From Streptomyces iakyrus (GTDB lineage Bacteria; Actinomycetota; Actinomycetes; Streptomycetales; Streptomycetaceae), in NCBI RefSeq assembly GCF_000717055.1, contig NZ_JNXI01000020.1, forward strand, positions 233,013 to 297,012: a DNA stretch of 64,000 bases. Direction: 5' to 3'. The notes under the pieces were generated by a model. That model was given only the letters and a program-made list of their open reading frames with translations, did not search any database and had not been told where the DNA came from. A program made the translations under genes and the position numbers. This document shows, in pieces, positions 46,828 to 59,628 of this stretch. Numbering within the stretch: the first letter of the stretch is position 1; every line of letters starts with the position of its first letter.

Positions 46828-47829
46828 TCACACCGTCGTGGGCAGTGCTTTCGCGCCATCTTCGGTGACGCGGGTGGCTCCGAAGTAGTCGGGGGTGTCG
46901 ATCGGGTCGAACCGGATGACGGCACCGGTCCGGGGCGCGTCGATCATGTACCCGCCTCCGACATAAATGCCGACATGCCGGATGGCACGGGAATTGGTGA
47001 GGTCGTCCGAGAAGAACACGAGGTCGCCGGGGAGCAGTTCGTCCCGCGAGGGGTGCGGACCGGCGTTGTACTGGTCGTTGGCGACGCGCGGCAGCTTGAT
47101 GCCCACGCTCGCGTAGGCGGCCTGGGTCAGTCCCGAGCAGTCGAAGCGTCCGCCCTGCTCAGCGGTGCCGGTACCGCCCCAGAGGTAGAGCGTGCCGAGC
47201 TTCTTCTGCGCGTACTCGATCGCGCCTGCGGCCTGCTCGGAGGGGTCGACCCGCCCGACCGGCGCCGCGAAGCTCTCCGAGAGCGTCGTGATCCGCTTCA
47301 CGTAGTTCCGGGTCTCGCTGTACGGCGGCACGCCCCCGTACTTGATCACCGCGTACGCCCCCGCGTTGTAGGCGGCCAGCATGTTTTCGGTCGGATTCCC
47401 GCCAACCTTCTTCACGTACGACGCGAGTTCGCAGTCGTAGGAGGCGGCGGAGGGGATCGCGTCCTTCGGATCCCACACGTCACGGTCGCCGTCGCCGTCG
47501 CCGTCGATGCCGTGACTGGCCCACGTTCCGGGGATGAACTGCGCTATGCCCTGCGCGGCGGCGTGGCTCTGGGCCCTGGGGTTGAAGCCGCTCTCCTGGT
47601 AGAGCTGCGCGGCGAGCAGGGCCGGGCTGATGGCGGGGCAGAGATTGCCCCACTTCTGCACGAGGGCCGCGTACGCGGCGGGCACCGATCCTTTGGCGAG
47701 CGATTTCGCCCCGCCGCCCACGCCGTTGACCAGGTTTCCGGCGACGAGGTAGACCCCGACGACGAGCAGCATCACGAAGGCCAGGGCGGAGCTGATGGCG
47801 ACACTCGCCACGATCCATGCCTTACGCAC
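46828..47829 (-). CDS. membrane-anchored lytic transglycosylase - NlpC/P60 hydrolase
   Basis: 333 aa. TM anchor about 6-33; SLT domain about 55-190 with catalytic Glu in LYQESGFNPRAQS and a DGDGDGDRDVWDPKDA acidic loop that may bind calcium; NlpC/P60 domain about 200-333 with Cys in RFDCSGLTQAAY and His in IRHVGIYVGGG. Such two-enzyme proteins open peptidoglycan for conjugation or type IV secretion machines (e.g. Tn916-like Orf14), which fits the type IV-like operon at 52.4-59.6 kb. GTG 47829 preferred (GAGGGG 9 nt upstream); TTG 47835 is an alternative. Confidence 0.93.
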   Translation of the reverse strand: MRKAWIVASVAISSALAFVMLLVVGVYLVAGNLVNGVGGGAKSLAKGSVPAAYAALVQKWGNLCPAISPALLAAQLYQESGFNPRAQSHAAAQGIAQFIPGTWASHGIDGDGDGDRDVWDPKDAIPSAASYDCELASYVKKVGGNPTENMLAAYNAGAYAVIKYGGVPPYSETRNYVKRITTLSESFAAPVGRVDPSEQAAGAIEYAQKKLGTLYLWGGTGTAEQGGRFDCSGLTQAAYASVGIKLPRVANDQYNAGPHPSRDELLPGDLVFFSDDLTNSRAIRHVGIYVGGGYMIDAPRTGAVIRFDPIDTPDYFGATRVTEDGAKALPTTV

Positions 47830-47866
47830 CGTCAACCGCCCCTCGCTGCCCAGGAGTCCGTTGGTC

Positions 47867-47895: not shown

Positions 47896-48000
47896 TGATC
47901 ACGGGGAGGGGAGTCGGGGCGGACGGAGGAACGGGCCACAGCACGGGCAGCACGGCGAGAGCACGGTGGTTCCGGCCGGGCGCACGGGTTCACGGCCCGT

Positions 48001-48090
48001 CACGGATTTGCCGCCTGCTTCACGTCCCGTCACGGATACGCCGCCTGCTTCACTCCCGGTCACGGATACGCCGCCGCCTGCTCGTACAGC
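48001..48090. repeat. three tandem 30-bp repeats at the 3' end of the protease gene
   Basis: Units begin at 48001, 48031 and 48061, each starting cacggatNNgccgcc; the first two differ at a few positions and the third carries a 3-nt insertion and diverges at its end. The unit at 48061 encodes the last codons of the protease; the others lie downstream of its stop. Confidence 0.75.
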
Positions 48091-48770
48091 CGCCGCGCCT
48101 GCGCGCCGAGGACCACGCTGTAGGAGACGCCGGAGGTGGTCCCGCCCTGGTCGTGCCCGCCGAGGACCCCGACGACCTGCCCGTCCCCGTTCACCCAGGG
48201 GCTGCCGCTGGTGCCACCGCTGAACCCGGGGCACGCGATGCGCTGCTGGGTGCGGCTGAGCGCGTGCGGCTCGGCGGTGCAGCTGACGGCCGTCTCGCGC
48301 GCGTCGGGATACCCGGTGACGGTCACCGCGGTGGCCCCGGTCGCCGTGCCCGTGACGAACCGGTTCCCGCCGACGGCGTCCTGGACCTCCTCCCCGCCCC
48401 GGGGCGCGACCGCGGCGAATCCCACGTCGCTGTCCTCGTCCCGCCCGGCGGCCCACCCGCGGGCCAGGAACCGCCGCCGTACCGTCCACTGCCCGTAGGG
48501 CGCACGTCCGTCCCGGTACCCCGGCACGAAGACCAGCCCTCCGCCACCGCCCAGGCAGTGCGCCGCGGTCACGATCAGATTCCGGTGCGGGGCGTCCACC
48601 ACGGACGCCGTACAGAAGTGCCGTCCCCCCGCGGCGGGCACGAGCACCCCGACCCGGGCGTCCCGCGCGGTGACGGTCACCCCGAGGGGCCCGCCACCGT
48701 CGTCGGCGGTGGCGACGGACACGGTGAGGAGGGCGACGAGCATGACGACGACGGCCAGGACGCGCTTCAC
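48060..48770 (-). CDS. secreted trypsin-like serine protease
   Basis: 236 aa. Signal peptide about 1-24 (VKRVLAVVVMLVALLTVSV, cleavage near ATA). Chymotrypsin fold with His in VTAAHCLGGG, Asp in DEDSDVGFAAV and Ser in GGTSGSPWVNGDG. Four cysteines in the mature part likely pair. GTG start 48770; no clear Shine-Dalgarno. The stop falls within a tandem repeat array. It resembles glutamyl-endopeptidase-like S1 proteases; target unknown. Confidence 0.9.
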   Translation of the reverse strand: MKRVLAVVVMLVALLTVSVATADDGGGPLGVTVTARDARVGVLVPAAGGRHFCTASVVDAPHRNLIVTAAHCLGGGGGLVFVPGYRDGRAPYGQWTVRRRFLARGWAAGRDEDSDVGFAAVAPRGGEEVQDAVGGNRFVTGTATGATAVTVTGYPDARETAVSCTAEPHALSRTQQRIACPGFSGGTSGSPWVNGDGQVVGVLGGHDQGGTTSGVSYSVVLGAQARRLYEQAAAYP

Positions 48771-48805
48771 CGGGGGGACTGTGCCGGACGAAGGTGAGAG
48801 GAACG

Positions 48806-49738
48806 TCAGATGCCTGCCTGCTCGTCCTGGGCGAGCGGGAAGTGGGTGCCCGTCAGTTCCTCCGAGACCCGCCACAGCCGCCGGGCCGTCAGCGGATCGC
48901 CGGCGGCGCGGGAGCGCCCCACCAGGGTCGGGGCCCCGCGCATCTCGCCCAGGCCGTCGGGACCCACGTAGCTCGCGCCGGGGAGGTCCTCGGTGGCGGC
49001 GTAGAGGGTGGGGAGGGCGCCCGCGCGGTCGTCCTGCGCGAAGAACCTGTTGCCGAGGCGCATGAAGGCGCGCAGCACCGGGCTGGCCGCGTGGCTCTGG
49101 AGGTTGGTCGCCGCGTACCCGGGGTGTGCGGCCAGGGCGCGGACCGGGGAGCCCGACTCCGTGAGGCGGCGCTGGAGTTCCAGGGTGAACAGCAGGTTGG
49201 CGAGCTTGGACCGGGCGTAGGCGCGCTGCGGGGTGTAGTTCGCCGCCAGGTCCAGGTCGTCGAAGTCGATCCTCGCGCCGCCCCAGCGGTGGGCGCCCGA
49301 GGAGACCGTGACGACGCGGTCGGTGATGTGCGGCAGCAGCAGGTTCGTCAGGGCGAAGTGCCCGAGATGGTTCGTGCCGAACTGCATCTCGAAGCCGTCC
49401 TTGGTGCGCTGTCTGGGCAGCATCATCACGCCGGCGTTGTTGACGAGGAGGTGCAGCGGCCCCTGCCAGGCCTCGGCGAAGGCCCGCACGGAGGCCAGGT
49501 CCGCCAGGTCCAGCCGGCGCACCTCGGTGCTGCCGTGGACGGCCGCCGCCGCGGCCCGCCCGCGCTCGGTGTCCCGTACGGCGAGGACGACGTGCGCCCC
49601 CGCCCGGGCGAGCGCGTCGGCCGCGGTGAGGCCGATGCCGCTGTTGGCGCCGGTGACGACGACGGTCCGCCCGCCGAGGTCGGGCAGGCGGTCCGCGCTC
49701 CATGTCCCGCCGCTCTGGGTGTTCGTCTTCTCAGCCAT
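48806..49738 (-). CDS. short-chain dehydrogenase/reductase
   Basis: 310 aa. Rossmann nucleotide loop TVVVTGANSGIGLTAADALA, NNAGVMM, and the catalytic pair YARSK preceded by Ser in VVTVSSGAHRWGG. The RDTERGR after strand 2 suggests NADP. Similar to retinol-dehydrogenase-like actinobacterial SDRs. Leaderless: TACATT lies 6 nt before the ATG. Divergent from a TetR regulator that probably represses it. Confidence 0.93.
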   Translation of the reverse strand: MAEKTNTQSGGTWSADRLPDLGGRTVVVTGANSGIGLTAADALARAGAHVVLAVRDTERGRAAAAAVHGSTEVRRLDLADLASVRAFAEAWQGPLHLLVNNAGVMMLPRQRTKDGFEMQFGTNHLGHFALTNLLLPHITDRVVTVSSGAHRWGGARIDFDDLDLAANYTPQRAYARSKLANLLFTLELQRRLTESGSPVRALAAHPGYAATNLQSHAASPVLRAFMRLGNRFFAQDDRAGALPTLYAATEDLPGASYVGPDGLGEMRGAPTLVGRSRAAGDPLTARRLWRVSEELTGTHFPLAQDEQAGI

Positions 49739-49744
49739 GACCCG

Positions 49745-49811
49745 AATGTAGGCGCCGTCAACAATGCTGTCAATGACAACAATGATGGCATCGCCAACAT
49801 CGGGATACGAT
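49745..49811. promoter_or_regulatory. divergent SDR/TetR promoters with palindrome
   Basis: Minus strand: TTGACA (49768-49773), 17-nt spacer, TACATT (49745-49750), an almost consensus promoter for the SDR gene. Plus strand: TACGAT (49806-49811), 7 nt before the TetR ATG at 49819. The palindrome TGTCA-A-TGACA (49768-49778) covers the SDR -35 and is a good TetR operator candidate. Confidence 0.65.
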
Positions 49812-49818
49812 GGTGCGC

Positions 49819-50427
49819 ATGCCAGCCAGCCGCCCGGCGGAGAGCCGCCCCTACCACCACGGAGACCTGCGCTCCACCCTGCTCGCCGGCGCGGAACGCA
49901 CCCTGCGGGAGAAGGGGACCGGCGCGCTGTCGCTGCGCGAGCTGGCCCGGGAGGCGGGCGTCAGCCACGCCGCGCCCGGCCGCCACTTCAAGGACAAGCA
50001 GGCCCTGCTCGACGCCCTGGCACTCGTCGGCTACGACCGGCTGGGCCAGGCCCTGTCGGCCGCCGACGACCCCGCCCTCCCCCTGGAGCGGCGGCTCACC
50101 GTGCTGGCCCGGGCCTACCTCGCGTTCTCGATCGACAACGCCGAGCTGCTGGAGCTCATGTACGCCCGCAAGCACGAGCCGGACGCCTCCGAGCAGATGG
50201 CCGCCGCCGTCGACCGGACGGTGGGCTCCCTGGAGCGGGTCATCGCCGACGCCCAGGAACGCGGCGAGATCGTCGCGGGCGACCCCCAGCACCTGACCCT
50301 GCTGACCGGCGCCACCCTCCAGGGCATCGCCTCCTTCGCGGCGGGCGGCATGCTCGCGCCCGAGGCGGCCCTCGACGGCATCGAGGAGTTCGTCCACCTC
50401 CTCCTGCACGGCCTCAAGCCCCGCTGA
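49819..50427 (+). CDS. TetR-family transcriptional regulator
   Basis: 202 aa. N-terminal TetR helix-turn-helix (YHHGDLRSTLLAGAERTLRE, LSLRELAREAGVSHAAPGRHF, KDKQALLDALA) and a helical ligand domain. ATG 49819 chosen over 49810 because the latter lies within the TACGAT -10. Likely represses the divergent SDR gene and itself. Confidence 0.92.
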   Translation: MPASRPAESRPYHHGDLRSTLLAGAERTLREKGTGALSLRELAREAGVSHAAPGRHFKDKQALLDALALVGYDRLGQALSAADDPALPLERRLTVLARAYLAFSIDNAELLELMYARKHEPDASEQMAAAVDRTVGSLERVIADAQERGEIVAGDPQHLTLLTGATLQGIASFAAGGMLAPEAALDGIEEFVHLLLHGLKPR

Positions 50428-50537
50428 TCCCGGCCTCCGGGGTCAAGCCGCACCCATCGCCCGGCCATCGGCCCGTCAGCGATCAGTAAGCCCTCAACCT
50501 CCTTCAGCAATGCGGAGGTCAGGATTCCGAAACTCGT

Positions 50538-50560
50538 CTTGTTGTCACGTACCCAACAAG
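50538..50560. repeat. inverted repeat upstream of the sedolisin gene
   Basis: cttgttg (50538-50544) and caacaag (50554-50560) around 9 nt, about 95 nt before the TTG start. Possible regulatory site. Confidence 0.4.
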
Positions 50561-50654
50561 CGATCGTCGTCGCGGGTCGCCGCCCCCGCCGGGAAACGCA
50601 CCGGCGGTTCCCCCACCCGCAGGCCTCTGCCCACCACTGCCAGGAGGCTGTACC

Positions 50655-51947
50655 TTGCGCACGACACCGCACAACACCCTCTCCACACACCGCAGATGGC
50701 GCCGCACGCTCTCCGCCGTCACCGCAACCGCCGCGCTCCTCCTCACCGGCCTCGCCACCGCCGCCCAGGCCCAGGCCGCCGCGGACACGAGCACCTCCAA
50801 GGTCACCTGGACCCGTTCCTGCGCCCTGCCCCGCCACCAGGACGAGATGGCCTGCAACGCCCTGCGCGTCACGGGAGGCGTCACCGCCTTCCAGAAGCAG
50901 CACGGCATGTCGGCGAAGACCGCCGAAGCCACCTCCCCCTCCGGCTACGGCCCCACCGACCTGCGCAGCGCCTACGGCCTGGCCTCCGCCGCCACGAGCA
51001 ACGGCTCCGGCCGGACCATCGCCATCGTCGACGCCTACGACGACCCGAACGCCGAGTCCGACCTCGCCGCCTACCGCTCGCACTACGGCCTGCCCGCCTG
51101 CACCACCGCGAACGGCTGCTTCAAGAAGGTGAGCCAGACCGGCTCCACCACCGCCCTCCCCACCGCCGACAGCGGCTGGGCCGGCGAGATCTCCCTCGAC
51201 CTCGACATGGCGAGCGCGGTCTGCCCCAACTGCCACATCACCCTCGTCGAGGCGAAGTCGGCGACCATGGCCAACCTCGGCACCGCCGTCAACGAGGCCG
51301 TCGCCCTGGGCGCCAAGTACGTCTCCAACAGCTACGGCGGCGGCGAGTCCTCCTCCGACGCCTCCTACGACTCCGCCTACTTCAACCACCCGGGCGTCGC
51401 CATCACCGTCAGCGCGGGCGACGCCGGCTACGGCGCCGAGTACCCGGCCGCGTCGAAGTACGTGACGGCCGTCGGCGGCACCAGCCTCACCGCCTCCTCC
51501 ACCGCCCGCGGCTGGACCGAGAGCGTCTGGCGGACCAGCAGCACCGAGGGCACCGGCTCCGGGTGCTCCGCCTACGACACCAAGCCCGCCTGGCAGACCG
51601 ACACCGGCTGCACCCGGCGCATGATCGCCGACATCTCGGCCGTCGCCGACCCGGCGACCGGCGTCTCCGTCTACGACACCTACGGCGCCGACGGCCAGGG
51701 CTGGGCCACCTACGGCGGCACCAGCGCCTCCGCCCCGATCATCGCAAGCGTCTACGCCCTCGCGGGCACCCCGTCCACCGGCTCCTACCCCGCCGAGTTC
51801 CCCTACGCGAACACCTCCGCCCTGAACGACGTCACCAGCGGCAGCAACGGCAGCTGCACGACCAGCTACTTCTGCACCGCCCGGACGGGCTACGACGGTC
51901 CGACCGGCCTGGGCACCCCGGAGGGACTCGGCGCCTTCACCGGCTGA
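50655..51947 (+). CDS. secreted S53 (sedolisin) serine-carboxyl peptidase
   Basis: 430 aa. Signal peptide about 1-42 (ends AQAQAAA). Sedolisin catalytic residues: Glu and Asp in GWAGEISLDLDMA, oxyanion Asp in VSAGDAGYGAEY and nucleophile Ser in YGGTSASAPIIA. The usual ~180-residue inhibitory pro-domain is missing; only about 60 residues precede GYGPTDLRSAYGL. Cysteine pairs suggest disulfides. TTG start with AGGAGG 7 nt upstream. Acid-active secreted protease by family. Confidence 0.92.
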   Translation: MRTTPHNTLSTHRRWRRTLSAVTATAALLLTGLATAAQAQAAADTSTSKVTWTRSCALPRHQDEMACNALRVTGGVTAFQKQHGMSAKTAEATSPSGYGPTDLRSAYGLASAATSNGSGRTIAIVDAYDDPNAESDLAAYRSHYGLPACTTANGCFKKVSQTGSTTALPTADSGWAGEISLDLDMASAVCPNCHITLVEAKSATMANLGTAVNEAVALGAKYVSNSYGGGESSSDASYDSAYFNHPGVAITVSAGDAGYGAEYPAASKYVTAVGGTSLTASSTARGWTESVWRTSSTEGTGSGCSAYDTKPAWQTDTGCTRRMIADISAVADPATGVSVYDTYGADGQGWATYGGTSASAPIIASVYALAGTPSTGSYPAEFPYANTSALNDVTSGSNGSCTTSYFCTARTGYDGPTGLGTPEGLGAFTG

Positions 51948-52020
51948 CGCCTCCCGGACGGTGACAGACCGTCACCGAAGAACGCCACCGGGGCCGTGGG
52001 GGCCCGGGGTCGGCCGAAGA

Positions 52021-52056
52021 CGAAGGGGCCGCGGCAACCCAGCCGCGGCCCCTTCG
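52021..52056 (+). terminator. terminator of the sedolisin gene
   Basis: Perfect 15-bp stem (52021-52035 with 52042-52056) and 6-nt loop, about 74 nt after the stop codon. Confidence 0.85.
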
Positions 52057-52424
52057 CCGTGCCGGGTAGCCTTCACCCCGGGAACACCGGCGCGACCACT
52101 CACCCGATCAGCCGTCAGAAACAGCCCACAAGGGTGAGAAAGACCGCAAGAGGGCACAACGACGGAACCACACACCAGGTTCCGCTCCGACCTCATTGCC
52201 CGGCGTGACCTGCCGTGATACACAGAGTGACCATACGATCCTTCGCACACCACCCGTCGCCTCCCCTAGGGGCGGGAGCGGAAGGGTGGCAAGGTATTCG
52301 TACGAAACCCGCCAATCAATGACGCCAAGTCGACATCCGACAGCATCATTGTCGGCGAGAATGAGGCCTGACCTCTGCACGACCGCAGAGGATGCGGAAC
52401 TACCCAACAGGGGCGGTGACTTAC
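52057..52424. other. gene-free region before the type IV-like operon
   Basis: 368 nt with no convincing ORF on either strand and lower GC than its surroundings. It holds the palindrome cccctagggg (52263-52272) and ccgaca-N7-tgtcgg (52337-52355), the latter 70 nt before the first gene and possibly an operator. The operon promoter must lie here, but no strong -35/-10 pair is evident by eye. Confidence 0.6.
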
Positions 52425-52733
52425 ATGCTCTTTGCGGCCGACAAGGGAGACATCAACACCATCATCGGCGGGATCGCTCCGGACTGGGGCCCCTTCGGCA
52501 GCCTGGGCAACGAGGCGAAGGTGATGATCGAGGTCGTGATGGCGGTGGCCATCCTGCTCTGCCTCGGCATCGCCATCTGGGGCGCCGCCAAGCAGCGCAT
52601 CGGAGCGACCGCCCTGCGCGACACCTTCAGCGCGGAGCAGGGCAAGGGCCTCATCATCGCGGGTCTGACGGGAGTCTTCATCATCGGCTCACTCGGCACG
52701 CTGTTCACCATCGTGTACGGCATGGCCGTGTAG
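52425..52733 (+). CDS. small two-TM membrane protein, first gene of type IV-like operon
   Basis: 102 aa: MLFAADKGDINTIIGGIAPD, TM1 about 33-56 (VMIEVVMAVAILLCLGIAIW), a basic loop with a short helix (KQRIGATALRDTF), TM2 about 74-100. Two close TM helices, small size and first position resemble VirB2/VirB3-class subunits of type IV machines, although no signal peptide is present. ATG 52425 chosen; GTG 52416 and ATG 52392 are alternatives. Confidence 0.8.
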   Translation: MLFAADKGDINTIIGGIAPDWGPFGSLGNEAKVMIEVVMAVAILLCLGIAIWGAAKQRIGATALRDTFSAEQGKGLIIAGLTGVFIIGSLGTLFTIVYGMAV

Positions 52734-52823
52734 CCCGGGCACCGACCGCCCGGCCGGGCACGCCCGGCTCCCTCTCCATCCCACCCGCCCGTCGTGCCCA
52801 CCGGCTGAGGTTGCGTTTCCCTG

Positions 52824-52946
52824 ATGTCGAGTCACCACACCGCGCCCGCGCGGGAACCAGCACGGCTACCGTCGTACGAGGAGTATGAGAAGTACGACCG
52901 GTACGAAGTGTTTCCGCACGACGTGGAGGGGGCGCACGCGGCATGA
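52824..52946 (+). CDS. 40-aa Tyr/Glu-rich peptide coupled to the VirB8-like gene
   Basis: An ORF of 41 codons: MSSHHTAPAREPARLPSYEE then YEKYDRYEVFPHDVEGAHAA. Its TGA overlaps the next ATG as ATGA, the junction used throughout this operon, and the YEEYEKYDRYE run is unusual for random frames. Only a distant GAGG serves as ribosome site. Soluble, acidic; function unknown. Confidence 0.62.
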   Translation: MSSHHTAPAREPARLPSYEEYEKYDRYEVFPHDVEGAHAA

Positions 52947-53770
52947 GTCTCGGTGACGACCACGAGTCCTCCGGCGGTTACGGCGGCACGGGCCACACCC
53001 GCACCCGCCTGCCCGACTCCGGCGACGCCTTCGGCGACCCCCGCCGCCGCTCCTCCTCGCGCAGCCTGGTCACGGTGGTCGGCGTGGTGGTCCTCCTGAT
53101 CGCGGCGATCGCCTTCGCGAACCGGGGGGACGGCGATGCGTCCTCCTCGACGGAGGGTTCCGCGGGCAAGCCGGAGACGTCGGCGACGGCGCCCTCCGGT
53201 AAACGCCCCGTCACGGCCAAGTCGGCCGCAGGCATCCCGTCGGGCTTCGCCCAGGACCAGGAGGGTGCGGAGAGCGCCGCGGCGAACTACGCCGTCGTCC
53301 TCGTGTCAGCCGACATCCTCAAGCCCGCCCGGCGACCCGAGATCGTCCGCCAGGTGTTCGACGCCGGCAAGGTCCCCGAGCTGGAGAAGAACCTCGACCG
53401 GGTCTACAGCAAGGCGTTCCTGGAGAAGGTCGGCCTGGACGCGAACGGCGACGCGCCCAAGGGCAGCACCTACGTCTCCCGCACGATGCCGGTCGGCACC
53501 AAGGTCACCGACTTCTCGGGCAGCACCGCCACCGTCGAGGTCTGGTGCACAGGCGTGTTCGGGATGACGGGAGAGAGCTCGCAGAACCCGGTCACCAACG
53601 ACTGGTTCACCATGACCCTCCAACTGCGCTGGGCCGACGGCGACTGGAAGGTCGACAGCTTCTCCCAGAAGGAAGGCCCCGCGCCGGTCAACGGCGACAA
53701 CAGGGTGTCGACGTCGGAGGCCATCTCCAAGGCCGTCGAGGAGTTCGGAGGGTTCACGTATGCCCGGTAG
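52943..53770 (+). CDS. VirB8/TcpC-like bitopic membrane protein
   Basis: 275 aa. Cytoplasmic Gly/Arg-rich N-terminus, single TM about 42-60 (LVTVVGVVVLLIAAIAFA), Ser/Thr/Lys linker, then an extracytoplasmic domain (about 105-270) with SAAANYAVVLVSADILKPAR, PVGTKVTDFSGSTATVEVWC and TLQLRWADGDWKVDSFSQKEGPAP, the alpha+beta pattern of NTF2-like VirB8/TcpC domains. Such proteins scaffold the conjugation channel. Overlaps the neighbours on both sides. Confidence 0.8.
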   Translation: MSLGDDHESSGGYGGTGHTRTRLPDSGDAFGDPRRRSSSRSLVTVVGVVVLLIAAIAFANRGDGDASSSTEGSAGKPETSATAPSGKRPVTAKSAAGIPSGFAQDQEGAESAAANYAVVLVSADILKPARRPEIVRQVFDAGKVPELEKNLDRVYSKAFLEKVGLDANGDAPKGSTYVSRTMPVGTKVTDFSGSTATVEVWCTGVFGMTGESSQNPVTNDWFTMTLQLRWADGDWKVDSFSQKEGPAPVNGDNRVSTSEAISKAVEEFGGFTYAR

Positions 53771-55088
53771 CCCGCGCCGCGCGGTCAAGGTCGCCGCAAC
53801 CCTCACCGCCGTGCAGACCGCCCTGGTCCTGTTCGCCACCCGGGCGGCAGCCGCTCCCACCCCCTCGCCCAGCCCCAGCAACGACAACTGCTCCCTGCTC
53901 TCCGGCCGGGCCCGGGAAATCTGCGAGGGCGACACCGGCAGCGGATCCGGCAGCGGAACCTCCCGCCTCGACCCCACCTCCACCCTCGACCCCCTCTCCT
54001 CCCTCGCCAAAGGCTGCGCCGACGCCGCCTCCTGGACCGTCGACAAGCTCAGCGAGGCCGTGAAGGAGACCGCCAACGTCGACTTCACCAACCCCAAGTT
54101 CCTCCAGCAGTACGCCGTCGTCTTCGCCGCGTCGACGATCCTCACGCTCCTGCTCTGGCTCCTGGCCGTCGCCAAGCGAGCCGTCCGCGGCGTGCCCCTG
54201 ACCACCGCCCTCTCCGAAGCCATCGGCTTCCTGTGGCTCACGGTGCTGGCCTCCGCCTTCACCCCGCTGATCCTCTACACCGTCGTATCGGCCACCGACG
54301 GCATCACCGAGGTCCTCGCGAAAGCCACCGGCGACCAGACCGACGCGTTCTTCGGCACGTTCTCCGAGGCCCTCAAGAAGGGCGAGGACATCGGCGGCGG
54401 CCCGATCATGCTGATCGTCGTCTCCCTGGTCAGCATCCTCGCCGCCGGCGTCCTCTGGCTGGAGCTCGTCATCCGGGCCGCCCTGCTCTACGTCGGCGCC
54501 CTCCTCGGCACCGTCGTCTACGCAGGCCTCGTCGACAAGAACCTGTGGGGCCACGTCCGCCGCTGGGCCGGCATCATGATCGCGGTCATCCTCATCAAGC
54601 CGGTCATCGTCATCGTCCTCGGCCTCGCCGGCGCACTCTCCGCCGACGACGGCCCGAACGCCTTCTCCGCCGTCGTCTCCGGCCTCGCCATCATCCTGCT
54701 CGCCATCTTCGCCAGCGCGATGATCTACCGCTTCGTCCCCGGCTTCGGCGACGAGATCGCCGGCTCCCGCAACAACCGCCTCATGCAGGGCGCCGAGAGC
54801 AAGGCCGCCGCGGTCATCAGCTCCCCGGCCACCCTCGTCGCGCAGGGCATCAAGACCCACAGCTCCCGCGCCGACAACAACGGCGGAGGCGGCCAGTCCG
54901 CCGCCCCCCGCCCCAGCAACCCCGCCTCCGGCGGAGTCGCCGCGCACAGTGGGCGCACCTCGAACGGCGGCGGCGGATCTGTCCCCTCCGCCGCACCCGC
55001 CCCCCGTTCGAGCAGCCCCGTCAACACTCCCCACGCCAGCAACACCCGCAACAGCAGTACCAACCGCACGGGAGGTGAAGGGCGTTGA
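53760..55088 (+). CDS. VirB6/TrbL-like polytopic channel protein
   Basis: 442 aa. Signal peptide about 1-32 (ends RAAAA), Cys-containing loop (DNCSLLSGRAREIC), helix DFTNPKFLQQYAVVFAASTI, then six or seven TM helices to about 335, and a ~100-residue Asn/Gly/Ser/Pro-rich tail. This order, a polytopic core with a long disordered tail, matches TrbL/VirB6-type proteins of Gram-positive conjugation systems. Start ATG 53760 overlaps the VirB8-like gene by 11 nt. Confidence 0.82.
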   Translation: MPGSPRRAVKVAATLTAVQTALVLFATRAAAAPTPSPSPSNDNCSLLSGRAREICEGDTGSGSGSGTSRLDPTSTLDPLSSLAKGCADAASWTVDKLSEAVKETANVDFTNPKFLQQYAVVFAASTILTLLLWLLAVAKRAVRGVPLTTALSEAIGFLWLTVLASAFTPLILYTVVSATDGITEVLAKATGDQTDAFFGTFSEALKKGEDIGGGPIMLIVVSLVSILAAGVLWLELVIRAALLYVGALLGTVVYAGLVDKNLWGHVRRWAGIMIAVILIKPVIVIVLGLAGALSADDGPNAFSAVVSGLAIILLAIFASAMIYRFVPGFGDEIAGSRNNRLMQGAESKAAAVISSPATLVAQGIKTHSSRADNNGGGGQSAAPRPSNPASGGVAAHSGRTSNGGGGSVPSAAPAPRSSSPVNTPHASNTRNSSTNRTGGEGR

Positions 55089-56641
55089 CGACCGAGTCCC
55101 ACGTGTCCCATCCGGTCACGCCCCGCCGGACATACCTGATCGGCCGCGCCCGGCCGAACGCGATCATCGGCCGCAACCGCGAGACCGGCGAGATCGCCCT
55201 GATCGTCGTGGGCGCGTTCCTCGGCATGATGTGCGGGCTCCTCGTCCCGGTGCTGTCCCTGCGCATCGTGCTGCTCGCCGGGTTCCCGATGCTGGCGCTG
55301 GCCGCGGTGTACGTGCCGTACAAGCACCGCACGTTCTACAGGTGGTTCGAGATCAACCGCAGCTACAAGCGGACCCTCAAGCAAGGCACCACCTACCGCT
55401 CCACCGCGATCGAGGCCGGCACCCGGCTGGACGGCAAGGAGATCGAGGTCGGCCCGCCCCCGGGCATCGGCCGCATCACCTGGCTGGCCGCCCCCTTCGG
55501 CCCCGACGAGATCGCCGTGCTCCTGCACGCCGACCGCAAGACCGTCACCGCCGCCATCGAGATCGAGGGCCCCGGCGTCGGCCTGCGCGACAGCGAGGAC
55601 CAGGAAGCCCTCGTCGACCGCTTCGGCACCCTGCTCAAGCACGTGGCCAACGGCGACGGCTTCGTCACCCGCCTCCAGATGCTGGCCCGCACCCTCCCGG
55701 CCGACCCGGACGCCCACGCCAAGGACGTCGCCGTCCGCGGCGACGACAAGGCCCTGCCATGGCTCCAGGAGTCCTACGACCAGCTCCAGTCGATGGTGTC
55801 CACCAGCAGCGAGCAGCACCGCGCCTACCTCGTCGCCTGCATGCACTACACGCGCGACCTCGCCGCCGAGGCGGGCGCCATGGCCCGGGCGGCCCGTGCC
55901 CACGGCGGCAAGGTCGACCGCGACGCCGGACTCGCCGTCGTCATGGCCCGCGAGCTCACCGACATCTGCTCGCGGCTCCAGGAGGCCGACATCCGCGTCC
56001 GGCAGCCCCTCGGTCAGGGACGGCTGGCCTCGCTGATCCACTCCATGTACGACCCGGACCACCCCATCGACCACATCCAGGCGATGACCAAGCGCAACGC
56101 CTGGCCGGCCGAGCTCGACGCCATGGAGCCCACCTACCTCCAGGCCAAGACCCGCGAGTCCTCCACCCGCGCCCCCTGGTGCCATGCCACGGCCTGGGTG
56201 AAGGAGTGGCCGATGACCCCCGTCGGCGTCAACTTCCTCGCCCCGCTGCTCGTCCACACCCCGGACGTCATCCGCACGGTCGCCGTCACGATGGACCTCG
56301 AACCCACCGAGGTCGCCATCGAGCGCATGCTGACGGAGAAGACCAACGACGAGGCCGAGGCCTCCCGCGCCGCCAAGATGAACCGCACGGTCGACCCGCG
56401 CGACATCGCCGCCCACTCCCGGCTCGACCAGCGCGGCGAGGACCTCGCCAGCGGCGCGGCCGGCGTCAACCTCGTCGGCTACATCACCGTCTCCTCCCGC
56501 AACCCCGACGCGCTCGCCCGCGACAAGCGCACGATAAGGGCCTCCGCGGGCAAGTCGTACCTCAAGCTGGAATGGTGCGACCGCGAGCACCACCGCGCCT
56601 TCGTGAACACCCTTCCCTTCGCCACCGGCATTCGGAGGTAG
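55085..56641 (+). CDS. SCO6880-family protein: VirB3/VirB4 N-terminal half
   Basis: 518 aa. Two adjacent TM helices (about 38-75) like VirB3/PrgI, then a soluble region with the N-terminal VirB4-type features (GPPPGIGRITWLAAPFGPDE, HYTRDLAAEAGAMARAARAH) and a C-terminal GVNLVGYITVSSRNPDALARD stretch. No Walker motifs: the ATPase half is the next gene. TTG start with GGAGGTGAAGG upstream; TTGA overlap with the previous gene. Confidence 0.85.
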   Translation: MTTESHVSHPVTPRRTYLIGRARPNAIIGRNRETGEIALIVVGAFLGMMCGLLVPVLSLRIVLLAGFPMLALAAVYVPYKHRTFYRWFEINRSYKRTLKQGTTYRSTAIEAGTRLDGKEIEVGPPPGIGRITWLAAPFGPDEIAVLLHADRKTVTAAIEIEGPGVGLRDSEDQEALVDRFGTLLKHVANGDGFVTRLQMLARTLPADPDAHAKDVAVRGDDKALPWLQESYDQLQSMVSTSSEQHRAYLVACMHYTRDLAAEAGAMARAARAHGGKVDRDAGLAVVMARELTDICSRLQEADIRVRQPLGQGRLASLIHSMYDPDHPIDHIQAMTKRNAWPAELDAMEPTYLQAKTRESSTRAPWCHATAWVKEWPMTPVGVNFLAPLLVHTPDVIRTVAVTMDLEPTEVAIERMLTEKTNDEAEASRAAKMNRTVDPRDIAAHSRLDQRGEDLASGAAGVNLVGYITVSSRNPDALARDKRTIRASAGKSYLKLEWCDREHHRAFVNTLPFATGIRR

Positions 56642-56647
56642 GACCTG

Positions 56648-58057
56648 ATGCGGGACCCGCTGTCCGTCCTCACCGACGCCTTCACCTCCTTCCTCTTCGG
56701 GAAGGTCGAGACGACCAGGCTCCCGGTGCGCACGTCCACGGGCCAGGCCCAAGCGGTCTACCTCCCGACCGCCGCCCCCGGCCTCGGCGACTCCGGCGTC
56801 ATCATCGGCCGCGAGGTGTACTCCGGAAAGGGCTACATCTACGACCCCTTCCAGCTCTACGGCCAGCAGCTCCCCGCCCCCCACTGGCTGGTCCTCGGCG
56901 AGTCCGGCAACGGCAAGTCGGCGCTGGAGAAGACGTACGTGCTGCGTCAGCTCCGCTTCCGCGACCGCCAGGTCGTCGTCCTGGACGCCCAGGGCGAGGA
57001 CGGCGTCGGCGAGTGGAACCTCATCGCGCAGGAGCTGGGCATAACTCCCATCCGCCTGGACCCGATGGCGGCCCTGGACATGGGCATCCGCCTCAACCCG
57101 CTCGACCCCGCGATCACGACGACGGGCCAGCTGGCCCTGCTCCGGACGATCATCGAGGTCGCCATGGGCCACGGCCTGGACGAACGCTCCGGCTTCGCCC
57201 TCAAGGTCGCCCACGCCTACGTCAACGAGACCATCGTCGACCGCCAGCCGGTCCTCACCGACATCGTCGAGCAGCTGCGTCACCCCGAGCCCGAGTCGGC
57301 CGAGTCGATGAACGTCGCCATAGACGACGTACGGGCCTGGGGCCTCGACGTCGCCCTGGTCCTGGACCGCCTGGTCGACGGTGACCTGCGCGGCATGTTC
57401 GACGGCCCGACGACGGTCGGCATCGACCTGGACGCCCCGCTCATCGTCTTCGACCTGTCCCACATCGACCGCAACTCCATCGCCATGCCCATCCTCATGG
57501 CGATCGTCGGCGTGTGGCTGGAGCACACCTGGATCCGCCCCGACCGGAAGAAGCGCATCTTCCTCGTCGAGGAGGCCTGGCACATCATCAACAGCCCCTT
57601 CGTCGCCCAGCTGTTCCAGCGCCTGCTGAAATTCGGCCGACGCCTGGGCCTGTCCTTCGTGGCGGTGGTCCACCACCTGTCGGACGTCGTGGACGGGGCG
57701 GCCGCCAAGGAAGCGGCGGCGATCCTCAAGATGGCCTCGACCAGGACGATCTACGCCCAGAAGGCCGACGAGGCGAGAGCCACGGGCCGGGTCCTGGGCC
57801 TGCCCCGCTGGGCGGTGGAGATCATCCCGACCCTCACCCCCGGCATCGCCGTCTGGGACGTCAACGGCAACGTCCAGGTCGTCAAACACCTCGTCACGGA
57901 GACCGAACGCCCTCTGGTCTTCACCGACCGCGCGATGACCGAGTCCTCCGCGGAACTGGCGGACGACGCCCTGCACGCCGCCGAACTGGAGGCGGAGGAA
58001 CGGGCCGCGGCCTTCGTGGAGCACCACCTGGGCGACTCCGAATCGACGGTGGCGTAG
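56648..58057 (+). CDS. VirB4-like ATPase (C-terminal half of a split VirB4)
   Basis: 469 aa cytosolic AAA+/RecA-type ATPase. Walker A LVLGESGNGKSALEKTY, Walker B RKKRIFLVEEAWHIINSPF and downstream VVHHLSDVV as in VirB4/TraC. It powers assembly and transport in type IV systems. Begins 6 nt after the previous stop, so the pair acts as one VirB4 (inference). Confidence 0.9.
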   Translation: MRDPLSVLTDAFTSFLFGKVETTRLPVRTSTGQAQAVYLPTAAPGLGDSGVIIGREVYSGKGYIYDPFQLYGQQLPAPHWLVLGESGNGKSALEKTYVLRQLRFRDRQVVVLDAQGEDGVGEWNLIAQELGITPIRLDPMAALDMGIRLNPLDPAITTTGQLALLRTIIEVAMGHGLDERSGFALKVAHAYVNETIVDRQPVLTDIVEQLRHPEPESAESMNVAIDDVRAWGLDVALVLDRLVDGDLRGMFDGPTTVGIDLDAPLIVFDLSHIDRNSIAMPILMAIVGVWLEHTWIRPDRKKRIFLVEEAWHIINSPFVAQLFQRLLKFGRRLGLSFVAVVHHLSDVVDGAAAKEAAAILKMASTRTIYAQKADEARATGRVLGLPRWAVEIIPTLTPGIAVWDVNGNVQVVKHLVTETERPLVFTDRAMTESSAELADDALHAAELEAEERAAAFVEHHLGDSESTVA

Positions 58058-58074
58058 GCGCAAGGGGAGGACGC

Positions 58075-59628
58075 GTGAGACCGGACGACCGCCACACCCA
58101 GCGGGACGGCCAGGGAGGCATCCCCGACGGCCTGCTGGTCGGCATACTGGCGTTCCTCCTCGGCATGACCGTGCTGGTGTGGACGGCCACCGGCCTCGCC
58201 GCCCTGTTCGCCCACGGCTCCTGGCCGTCCGGCGTCACCTTCGCCCGCACGCCCCTGGCCATGCGCGGCCTCATCGCCCAGCCCCACGACATCCCCGGCG
58301 CCTGGCCCGAGACACCCCCGGGCGAACTCTCCGGCTACGGCCTGTTCTGGGGCCTGTTCATCGGCCAGCTGATGATCCTGGTCGTCCTGACGGTGTTCGT
58401 GATGGGCACGCTGGCCCGGTGGCGGGCGGTGCGGGCGAGGAACCGGGAGAACAGGATCCGGGCGGCGGAGGAACGGCCGGCACCGACGCCGCACGAGGTA
58501 CCGGCGGCGGCTCAGGAGCACACATCCACAGCAGTGCAGCACGAGGTCCCGACACCTCGCCGCTCGGCATCCGATCCCGCGAGCCCTCCGGGTCCGCCGG
58601 CAAGCCCTGCCGACCGCCCCCACCCGACGGCGACCGCCACCCCACCCCCGGCTGCCGTCCCCGCGACCCCGGCATCTCTGTTCGGGCAGGAACGCCTGGG
58701 CGGGTGGGAAAAGATCTTCGTGGCCCCCAGGGAAACCCGCCGAACCACCGCCACCCAGGCCGTACGCGACGCGGAAGGCCCCGCCCTCGTCGTCACCTCG
58801 AACCCCATCCTCTGGCAGGAAACCAAGGACGCCAGAGCCAAACTGGGCCCCACCCACCTCTACGACCCCACCCACCTCTGCGACACCCCGTCCCGGCTCC
58901 ACTGGTCCCCCACAGCCGGCTGCGAGGACAAGGCGACGGCAACCACGAGGGCCACCGCCCTCCTCACTCCTGTCCGCCCCACCGCCAAACTCGATCAGGC
59001 CCTCAGCGACACAGCCGAGATACTCCTGCGCAGCTACCTGCACGCCGCGGCGATCGACGGCCGCACCATCCGCCATGTCCACCGCTGGTCCCAGGGCACC
59101 CAGATCCAGGACGCCGTACGCATCCTGCGCACCAGCCCCAAGGCCGCCCCCGGCTCCGCGGGCGAACTCGAAGGCGCTCTCACGGCCCACCCCGAACGCC
59201 GCGACATGGCCCAGCAGCTGACGACCCGTGCGCTGGCCGCCCTCACCACGGTCAATATCCGCGAGGCCTGCACTCCCAACCGAACTGATGCCCTTGCCTT
59301 GGATTCCTTCGTCCACGAAGGGGGCACGCTTTATGTGGTGGGGGAATCCATCGAGGACCCCAGGACGAATCCGGGCGCGATGCCCCTCCTGACGGCCCTC
59401 GTCTCCAGCGTGGTCGAGCGCGGCCGGCACATGGCCGAACGGTCATCGGCCGGTCGCCTCGACCCACCAATGACGCTCGTCCTGGACGACGTCGCGGCCG
59501 TGGCCCCGCTTCCCCAGCTTCCGGAGCTGCTGGCCACCGGAGCGGACCGGGGCATGCCGACCCTGGCCCTGCTCCGGTCCCGCGAACAGGGCCGCGCCCG
59601 CTGGCCGCACGACGAACTTCCCGTCTAG
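58075..59628 (+). CDS. VirD4/TraG-like coupling protein with degenerate Walker A
   Basis: 517 aa. Two TM helices (about 20-47 and 92-113), a ~85-residue Pro/Ala/Thr-rich linker, then a VirD4-like domain: LVVTSNPILWQETKDARAKL, YDPTHLCDTPSRLHWSPTAGCED, LLRSYLHAAAIDG and Walker B LVLDDVAAVAPLPQLPELL. Where the P-loop GxxxxGKT belongs the protein reads APRETRRT (217-224): both Gly and the Lys are replaced. It may bind nucleotide poorly or not hydrolyse it. GTG start with GGGGAGG 4-5 nt upstream; last gene of the operon. Confidence 0.85.
   Translation: MRPDDRHTQRDGQGGIPDGLLVGILAFLLGMTVLVWTATGLAALFAHGSWPSGVTFARTPLAMRGLIAQPHDIPGAWPETPPGELSGYGLFWGLFIGQLMILVVLTVFVMGTLARWRAVRARNRENRIRAAEERPAPTPHEVPAAAQEHTSTAVQHEVPTPRRSASDPASPPGPPASPADRPHPTATATPPPAAVPATPASLFGQERLGGWEKIFVAPRETRRTTATQAVRDAEGPALVVTSNPILWQETKDARAKLGPTHLYDPTHLCDTPSRLHWSPTAGCEDKATATTRATALLTPVRPTAKLDQALSDTAEILLRSYLHAAAIDGRTIRHVHRWSQGTQIQDAVRILRTSPKAAPGSAGELEGALTAHPERRDMAQQLTTRALAALTTVNIREACTPNRTDALALDSFVHEGGTLYVVGESIEDPRTNPGAMPLLTALVSSVVERGRHMAERSSAGRLDPPMTLVLDDVAAVAPLPQLPELLATGADRGMPTLALLRSREQGRARWPHDELPV

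What the first reader, a model, noticed from the sequence alone, without database searches (positions are those of the whole stretch)
52425..59628. Relaxase-free type IV secretion-like operon in the chromosomal core
Seven co-directional genes with mostly overlapping starts encode a two-TM subunit, a 40-aa peptide, VirB8-like and VirB6-like proteins, VirB4 split over two genes, and a VirD4-like protein. There is no relaxase, replication, integration or entry-exclusion gene, and it sits among housekeeping genes, so it does not look like a mobile element. A transglycosylase/NlpC protein at 46.8-47.8 kb could serve as its wall-opening enzyme. It may export protein or be used in development or DNA handling.
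Basis: partly seen in the sequence, partly recalled or inferred. Interest (0 to 1): 0.8.

Follow-up and report, generated by a model that had tools for sequence, protein, structure and literature searches.

The report
Streptomyces cmd operon, plasmid-borrowed T4SS core
This is the known Streptomyces cmd operon, a DNA-transfer-like machine kept by the host for spore development; its substrate-feeding ATPase has decayed, and some plasmids carry copies of its parts without the main motor, as if they borrow the host's.

Summary
[quoted passage not shown] It is no integrated element: CmdF is in 197 of 200 Streptomycetaceae genomes, 17 of 17 genera. The lytic enzyme TgdA lies divergently upstream in 43 of 80 loci, within 1 kb in 21. 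CmdE has a VirB8 fold; CmdB/CmdC are a split VirB4. New here: (1) the VirD4-like CmdA decays. Walker A is lost in 66 of 66 Streptomyces copies, intact in 7 of 7 mobile cousins; the ATPase domain is missing in some genera, while CmdB and CmdF are most constrained. Canonical coupling-protein export is unlikely. (2) Streptomyces MobF plasmids carry CmdD, CmdE or CmdF captured from chromosomal Cmd, and 16 of 17 examined encode no CmdB-like VirB4, suggesting they feed DNA through the host's Cmd motor. Against: VirB4-less MobF plasmids also occur in 2 of 4 non-Cmd hosts, 7 of those 16 lack CmdD, and no transfer test was seen.

The parts
52425..52733 (+). cmdF: 102-aa two-TM subunit, VirB2/VirB3-like by architecture only (inferred)
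   Evidence: in 197 of 200 Streptomycetaceae genomes; pN/pS 0.073
52824..52946 (+). conserved 40-codon ORF, stop overlapping the cmdE start; not among the six published cmd genes
   Evidence: present in 73 of 80 loci, the other 7 contigs end too early; pN/pS 0.91 with low pS 0.143 over 61 sequences, so coding status uncertain
52943..53770 (+). cmdE: VirB8-like, one hydrophobic segment plus extracytoplasmic NTF2-like domain
   Evidence: relatives carry precomputed PF26526, named DUF8175, which my own Pfam scan did not list
53760..55088 (+). cmdD: polytopic VirB6-like candidate
   Evidence: SCO6881 family 1.5e-6, below cut-off; model poor
55085..56641 (+). cmdC: N-terminal half of a split VirB4 (SCO6880 family), two hydrophobic segments near the N-terminus (VirB3-like, inferred by eye)
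   Evidence: E 7e-52
56648..58057 (+). cmdB: VirB4 ATPase half, Walker A GESGNGKS with Lys90
   Evidence: mutation of Lys90 abolished complementation in S. coelicolor, loss of protein stability not excluded by its authors (PMC2782261)
58075..59628 (+). cmdA: VirD4-derived coupling protein, Walker A lost, C-terminus truncated
46828..47835 (-). tgdA (SCO4132 by domains and place): SLT transglycosylase + NlpC/P60, VirB1-like; separated from cmdF here by four other genes

Best explanation
The cluster is cmdFEDCBA with its partner tgdA: a vertically inherited, relaxase-free type IV secretion core that Streptomycetaceae keep for aerial growth and sporulation. Likely working, partly inferred: CmdB and CmdC form the VirB4 motor under a membrane platform of CmdD and CmdF, CmdE forms the outer arches, and TgdA opens the wall. 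ATP hydrolysis by CmdB drives assembly or turnover of the envelope structure (CmdF is the likely moved or polymerised subunit). Shown: gene content, conservation, VirB8 fold, VirB4 homology, loss of the CmdA P-loop; mutant phenotypes are from the literature. Inferred: complex formation, subunit roles, what moves. Because the coupling protein is dead or gone, the host machine probably has no VirD4-fed substrate of its own.
Against: No biochemical complex is known to me. CmdD as VirB6 and CmdF as VirB2/3 rest on context. In some genomes the operon is broken up: in G410 and G500 F/tgdA lie far from CmdA, and in G482 the E-A stretch (L187) has no F or tgdA. One CmdA (L182) still has GTGKS, so the loss is not universal. 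CmdA is still kept in the Streptomyces loci, so its remnant may have a structural role. The published mutants do not all behave alike: cmdA, C and F mutants made little or no blue pigment.
Confidence: 0.72

Rival explanations
1. Cmd doubles as a shared conjugation engine: MobF plasmids bring relaxase, a live coupling protein and captured CmdD/E/F, and use host CmdB/CmdC (VirB4), CmdA being bypassed.
For: 17 Streptomyces MobF plus coupling-protein plasmids examined: 9 carry CmdD, 7 CmdE, 3 CmdF of Cmd type; 1 of 17 has a CmdB-like VirB4 in whole-record search, while the positive controls gave 3 of 3; coupling-protein Walker A intact in 10 of the 10 looked at; the MobF-plasmid CmdD copies are one clade inside the chromosomal Cmd clade, grouping of plasmid-only CmdD with full-T4SS cousins rejected, p-AU 0.006, a chromosomal-only clade rejected, p-AU 0.001; a plasmid with a related coupling protein (NZ_CP023993) has its own complete VirB4-bearing set.
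Against: 2 of 4 MobF plasmids from non-Cmd hosts also lack a CmdB-like VirB4. 7 of the 16 VirB4-less plasmids have no CmdD, and closely related S. anulatus plasmids exist with and without D/E. D/E lie away from mobF. Three 24-28 kb linear plasmids carry CmdD without mobF. Published: deleting cmd did not change transfer of SLP2-derived pQC542 (but SLP2 has its own VirB4-like protein and an FtsK-type protein). Long branches weaken the tree. No transfer data seen for these plasmids.
Confidence: 0.35
2. The plasmid CmdD/E/F copies are exclusion or host-manipulation factors that jam or retune Cmd, not transfer parts.
For: Accessory D/E module, divergently transcribed in 7 of 7 plasmids that have both, present or absent on related plasmids; CmdD alone on linear plasmids.
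Against: CmdF copies lie a few genes from mobF; the CmdD copies of MobF plasmids form one clade, with purifying selection in the closest pair (pN/pS 0.09).
Confidence: 0.3
3. A working type IV exporter of protein or DNA fed by CmdA.
For: Core homologues present; CmdB ATPase conserved.
Against: CmdA P-loop lost or domain missing; no relaxase found; cmdA deletion sporulated normally.
Confidence: 0.1
4. A defective integrative conjugative element left in the chromosome.
For: An ICE scan of 11 related Streptomyces strains called one 'DICE' near mid-chromosome in all of them (PMC9513070 section 11), possibly this locus (my inference).
Against: Family-wide presence, strong purifying selection on B and F, mutant phenotypes.
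Confidence: 0.03

Closest known systems
cmdABCDEF of Streptomyces coelicolor (SCO4126-4131)
   Same: Same six genes and order; CmdB Walker Lys90 at the same position
   Different: Nothing essential; the 40-codon ORF, the decay of CmdA and the plasmid copies are not in the parts of the paper that I read
SLP2 tra genes; SCO6871-6884 cluster
   Same: SLP2: VirB4 halves and a TgdA-like enzyme. SCO6878/6880/6881 resemble cmdB/C/D according to PMC2782261
   Different: SLP2 carries an FtsK/SpoIIIE protein and is a transmissible plasmid; CmdB about 33% identical
Plasmid-borne cousin sets (for example pMDJK44.2, 59-kb contig of G579)
   Same: All seven parts, TgdA included, in one block
   Different: Coupling protein intact, extrachromosomal, CmdD outside the chromosomal clade
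VirB/D4 and Gram-positive conjugation T4SS (pCF10, pIP501)
   Same: VirB4, VirB8 fold, lytic enzyme
   Different: No relaxase, dead coupling protein, developmental role
CloDF13-type mobilizable plasmids with their own coupling protein (recalled, not tested)
   Same: Relaxase plus coupling protein without VirB4
   Different: Here the plasmids also carry captured VirB6/VirB8-like parts of a host core operon

Membership tests
cmd operon | six co-directional genes orthologous to SCO4126-4131 beside tgdA | tested here: met
   order, Lys90, SCO6880/6881 relation, tgdA upstream; no S. coelicolor sequence was aligned directly
type IV secretion system | VirB4 ATPase | tested here: met
   (split over CmdC and CmdB)
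type IV secretion system | VirB8 subunit | tested here: met
type IV secretion system | VirB6 subunit | tested here: inconclusive
   weak family hit, model pLDDT 45
type IV secretion system | VirB2/VirB3 subunits | not tested
   two-TM CmdF and CmdC N-terminus, by eye only
type IV secretion system | functional VirD4 coupling ATPase | tested here: not met
   Walker A lost in 66 of 66 Streptomyces CmdA; activity itself not tested
type IV secretion system | VirB1-type lytic enzyme linked | tested here: met
   tgdA in 43 of 80 loci within the fetched flank, under 1 kb from cmdF in 21, up to 5.4 kb in the rest; in mobile cousins L165-L167
conjugative element (ICE/plasmid) | relaxase | tested here: not met
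   no TrwC in genome; none in 14 neighbours; other relaxase families not searched genome-wide
conjugative element (ICE/plasmid) | patchy, horizontally acquired distribution | tested here: not met
   197 of 200 genomes, 17 of 17 genera

The most novel reading that the evidence does not exclude
A core, developmentally used T4SS of the host serves as the public conjugation motor for a class of Streptomyces MobF plasmids: the plasmids provide relaxase, a live coupling protein and host-derived CmdD/E/F adaptors, the chromosome provides VirB4, VirB3 and the wall hydrolase. The host's own coupling protein has decayed, so only plasmid-borne receptors can feed DNA into it. Plasmid transfer would then depend on a sporulation operon.
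Probability: 0.33. Interest if true: 0.87.

Novelty: new variant of a known kind. Interest (0 to 1): 0.62.

Why it matters
The operon has been known since 2009 but its mechanism is open. The dead coupling protein narrows its function: the machine is kept for what VirB4 does without VirD4. The captured subunits on VirB4-less MobF plasmids give a direct, cheap test of whether such Streptomyces plasmids use a host developmental machine. That would change how they are typed (11 of the 17 examined are called non-mobilizable by MOB-suite in the records) and would add to the TraB picture of Streptomyces conjugation.

Tried and rejected
Rejected: defective ICE (family-wide presence, constraint); working coupling-protein exporter (P-loop loss); plasmid CmdD as remnant of a full mobile T4SS (AU test). 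Led nowhere: AlphaFold of CmdD (pLDDT 45, not searched further); PF12846 search of the plasmids, insensitive: matches below cut-off in 4 of 23 records, over the cut-off in 0 of 23, two of the three positive controls missed; order-wide search around G588 (only one genome held). Not fetched from the 16 plasmids with CmdD at 40-61%: CP003722 (same length as CP003277), NZ_CP109036, NZ_CP109398, NZ_CP129916. The 17 MobF plasmids were picked by similarity to CmdD, CmdF, the coupling protein or the relaxase, not at random; six of them were fetched with a few kb missing, which the whole-record search covers for CmdB and the complete hit lists cover for F, D and E. In one search the rows L177 and L184 are 5'-nucleotidases placed by mistake, and L152 and L180 are N-terminal stubs; these four rows are left out of the count of 15. 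In some searches I give only what is listed; most misses are unlisted. Papers: PMC2782261 abstract, background, Results and Discussion read; PMC6585502, PMC12857230, PMC3218068 passages only; PMC9513070 passages and section 11; the 2013 tgdA paper only as an entry in a reference list. Searches for a link of Cmd to MobF plasmids found none in the held library (listings).
Full report
Identity. The seven ORFs exist as described. Six correspond in number, order and family to cmdF-E-D-C-B-A (SCO4131-4126) of S. coelicolor; I read that paper's background, Results and Discussion. It reports one transcript, sporulation, septation and chromosome-segregation defects and early actinorhodin in mutants, membrane location of CmdB, need for Lys90 (with protein instability not excluded), wild-type-like sporulation of the cmdA deletion, no significant effect of deleting the whole cluster on transfer of SLP2-derived pQC542, and it already raises a type IV-like channel. 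Our CmdB has its Walker lysine at residue 90; its second mutated lysine, 404, does not fall on a lysine here. I had no S. coelicolor sequence to align; L065 (S. violaceoruber) carries the same order. The NlpC/SLT gene at 46.8-47.8 kb is SCO4132 (tgdA) by domain content and place; a genome-wide mutagenesis paper lists it with cmdB-F among actinorhodin down-modulators (PMC6585502, passages).

Conservation. B, C, D and A are found in all 80 (several cut by contig ends), F in 72 and E in 73, the rest being contigs that end too early; none is out of order. CmdF occurs in 197 of 200 Streptomycetaceae genomes and 17 of 17 genera; the three misses have 660-1260 contigs. In a phylum sample it occurs in 13 of 396 genomes, 12 of them in the window's genus and one at E 1.9e-4. 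In a class sample of 394 genomes, 40 genomes of the genus are listed with CmdB at 90-100%, G588 of another order at 78%, and the other listed matches are at 27-38% apart from one second copy at 49%. G588 has tgdA-F-E-D-C-B on a contig that also holds a PhoU-like gene 74% identical to the one at 41.6 kb here, so the locus is probably old and vertical. TgdA was found in 43 of 80 loci: under 1 kb from cmdF in 21, 1.2-5.4 kb in 22. In this window four genes (a trypsin-like protease, a short-chain dehydrogenase, a TetR regulator, an unassigned 430-aa protein) sit between tgdA and cmdF. The operon is not always intact: in G410 and G500 F/tgdA lie far from CmdA, and the E-A stretch of G482 has no F or tgdA in the piece held.

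The coupling protein decays. Aligned to mobile cousins, CmdA keeps the region and the TraG-D_C start, but GK[ST] is gone from the Walker A site in 66 of 66 Streptomyces sequences, LDE has become LDD, and the chain ends 37-40 residues after Walker B against 156-178 in cousins; 7 of 7 cousins keep the P-loop. Of 15 further CmdA from other loci, one (L182) keeps GTGKS. Genus g249 has no CmdA at the locus in 5 of 5 genomes (one has a 29% match on another contig), g237 has an N-terminal stub with a stop in 3 of 3, G399 only a stub of this kind, G409 only a 28% match. Contig lengths identify g249 as Kitasatospora and g237 as Yinghuangia. Constraint over Streptomyces pairs, pN/pS: B 0.064, F 0.073, C 0.158, TgdA 0.256, D 0.363, A 0.438, E 0.530. 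So the motor and the small subunit are guarded and the substrate receptor much less.

Mobile cousins. L165-L167 and pMDJK44.2 have tgdA in front of F in one block, which ties TgdA to the machine as its VirB1.

Captured parts on plasmids. Three circular plasmids carry a CmdF 85-89% identical to ours, a few genes from a MobF relaxase. Sixteen plasmids carry CmdD at 40-61% identity; 15 of them are above the 35-43% of the full sets. I examined 12 of the 16. Together with other MobF plasmids found through the coupling protein or relaxase, 17 Streptomyces MobF plasmids were examined: all 17 have a coupling protein; 9 have CmdD, 7 CmdE, 3 CmdF of Cmd type; one (NZ_CP023993) has its own VirB4 set with a TgdA homologue and divergent D/E/F (the mobF of NZ_CP108972 is from its annotation). 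Whole-record search for CmdB found a match in that one and in the three positive controls, and in none of the other 16 nor in three small linear plasmids with CmdD. Walker A of the coupling protein was looked at in 10 plasmids and intact in 10. In the CmdD tree the nine MobF-plasmid copies are one clade (100/100) inside the chromosomal Cmd clade, while the full-set cousins lie outside (99/97); the alternatives are rejected (p-AU 0.006 and 0.001), with long branches as a caution. In the CmdE tree the plasmid copies are also one clade, at 92/90, with long branches. The closest plasmid pair shows pN/pS 0.09 for CmdD.

Results against the borrowing idea. Of four MobF plasmids from non-Cmd hosts, two have a distant CmdB-like match and two have none, so lacking VirB4 is not peculiar to Cmd hosts. 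Seven of the 16 VirB4-less Streptomyces plasmids carry no CmdD. Closely related S. anulatus plasmids exist with and without D/E. D/E lie apart from mobF and could be exclusion or host-manipulation factors. No transfer data for these plasmids were seen.

A second case. In another family of the class (f90, unnamed; Frankia is my guess) 31 of 35 genomes carry a CmdC relative at 82-100% identity to the f90 query. In five loci looked at it sits with a ParA-like protein, a two-TM protein, E, D and B, and no coupling protein or TgdA was detected in the fetched stretch.

Literature. In the held library the listings show no paper that links Cmd to MobF plasmids. The Streptomyces passages that I saw of a 2025 T4SS review treat TraB transfer. 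An ICE survey found a 'defective ICE' near mid-chromosome in all its strains, which I suspect is cmd.

Verdict. The decay of CmdA and the plasmid capture of CmdD/E/F are the new points, and the second makes a direct genetic test possible.

Noticed in passing
L157-L161 (family f90): A second family-wide chromosomal T4SS-like core (ParA-like, two-TM, E, D, C, B) with no coupling protein detected nearby; CmdC relative in 31 of 35 genomes.
   Followed up: partly
window 52824-52946: Conserved 40-codon ORF coupled to cmdE; its synonymous sites are conserved too, so it may also be an RNA or DNA element.
   Followed up: partly
window 47899-52200: Four genes between tgdA and cmdF, which are 0.3-0.8 kb apart in 21 of the 43 relatives where both were found.
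   Followed up: partly
L178, L187, L188: cmdF/tgdA separated from other cmd genes in some genomes.
   Followed up: no
L151 (G506, near chromosome end) and L168 (G412): Second copies of CmdF, and of CmdD in L168, away from the cmd locus.
   Followed up: no
L155, L156 (own genome): Two more T4SS-like clusters with TgdA-like, CmdC-like and CmdB-like genes at 36-37% CmdB identity.
   Followed up: no
L212, L214, L215: Small linear plasmids with a CmdD copy but no mobF or CmdB-like VirB4; L215 has an AAA_10-like ATPase below cut-off.
   Followed up: partly
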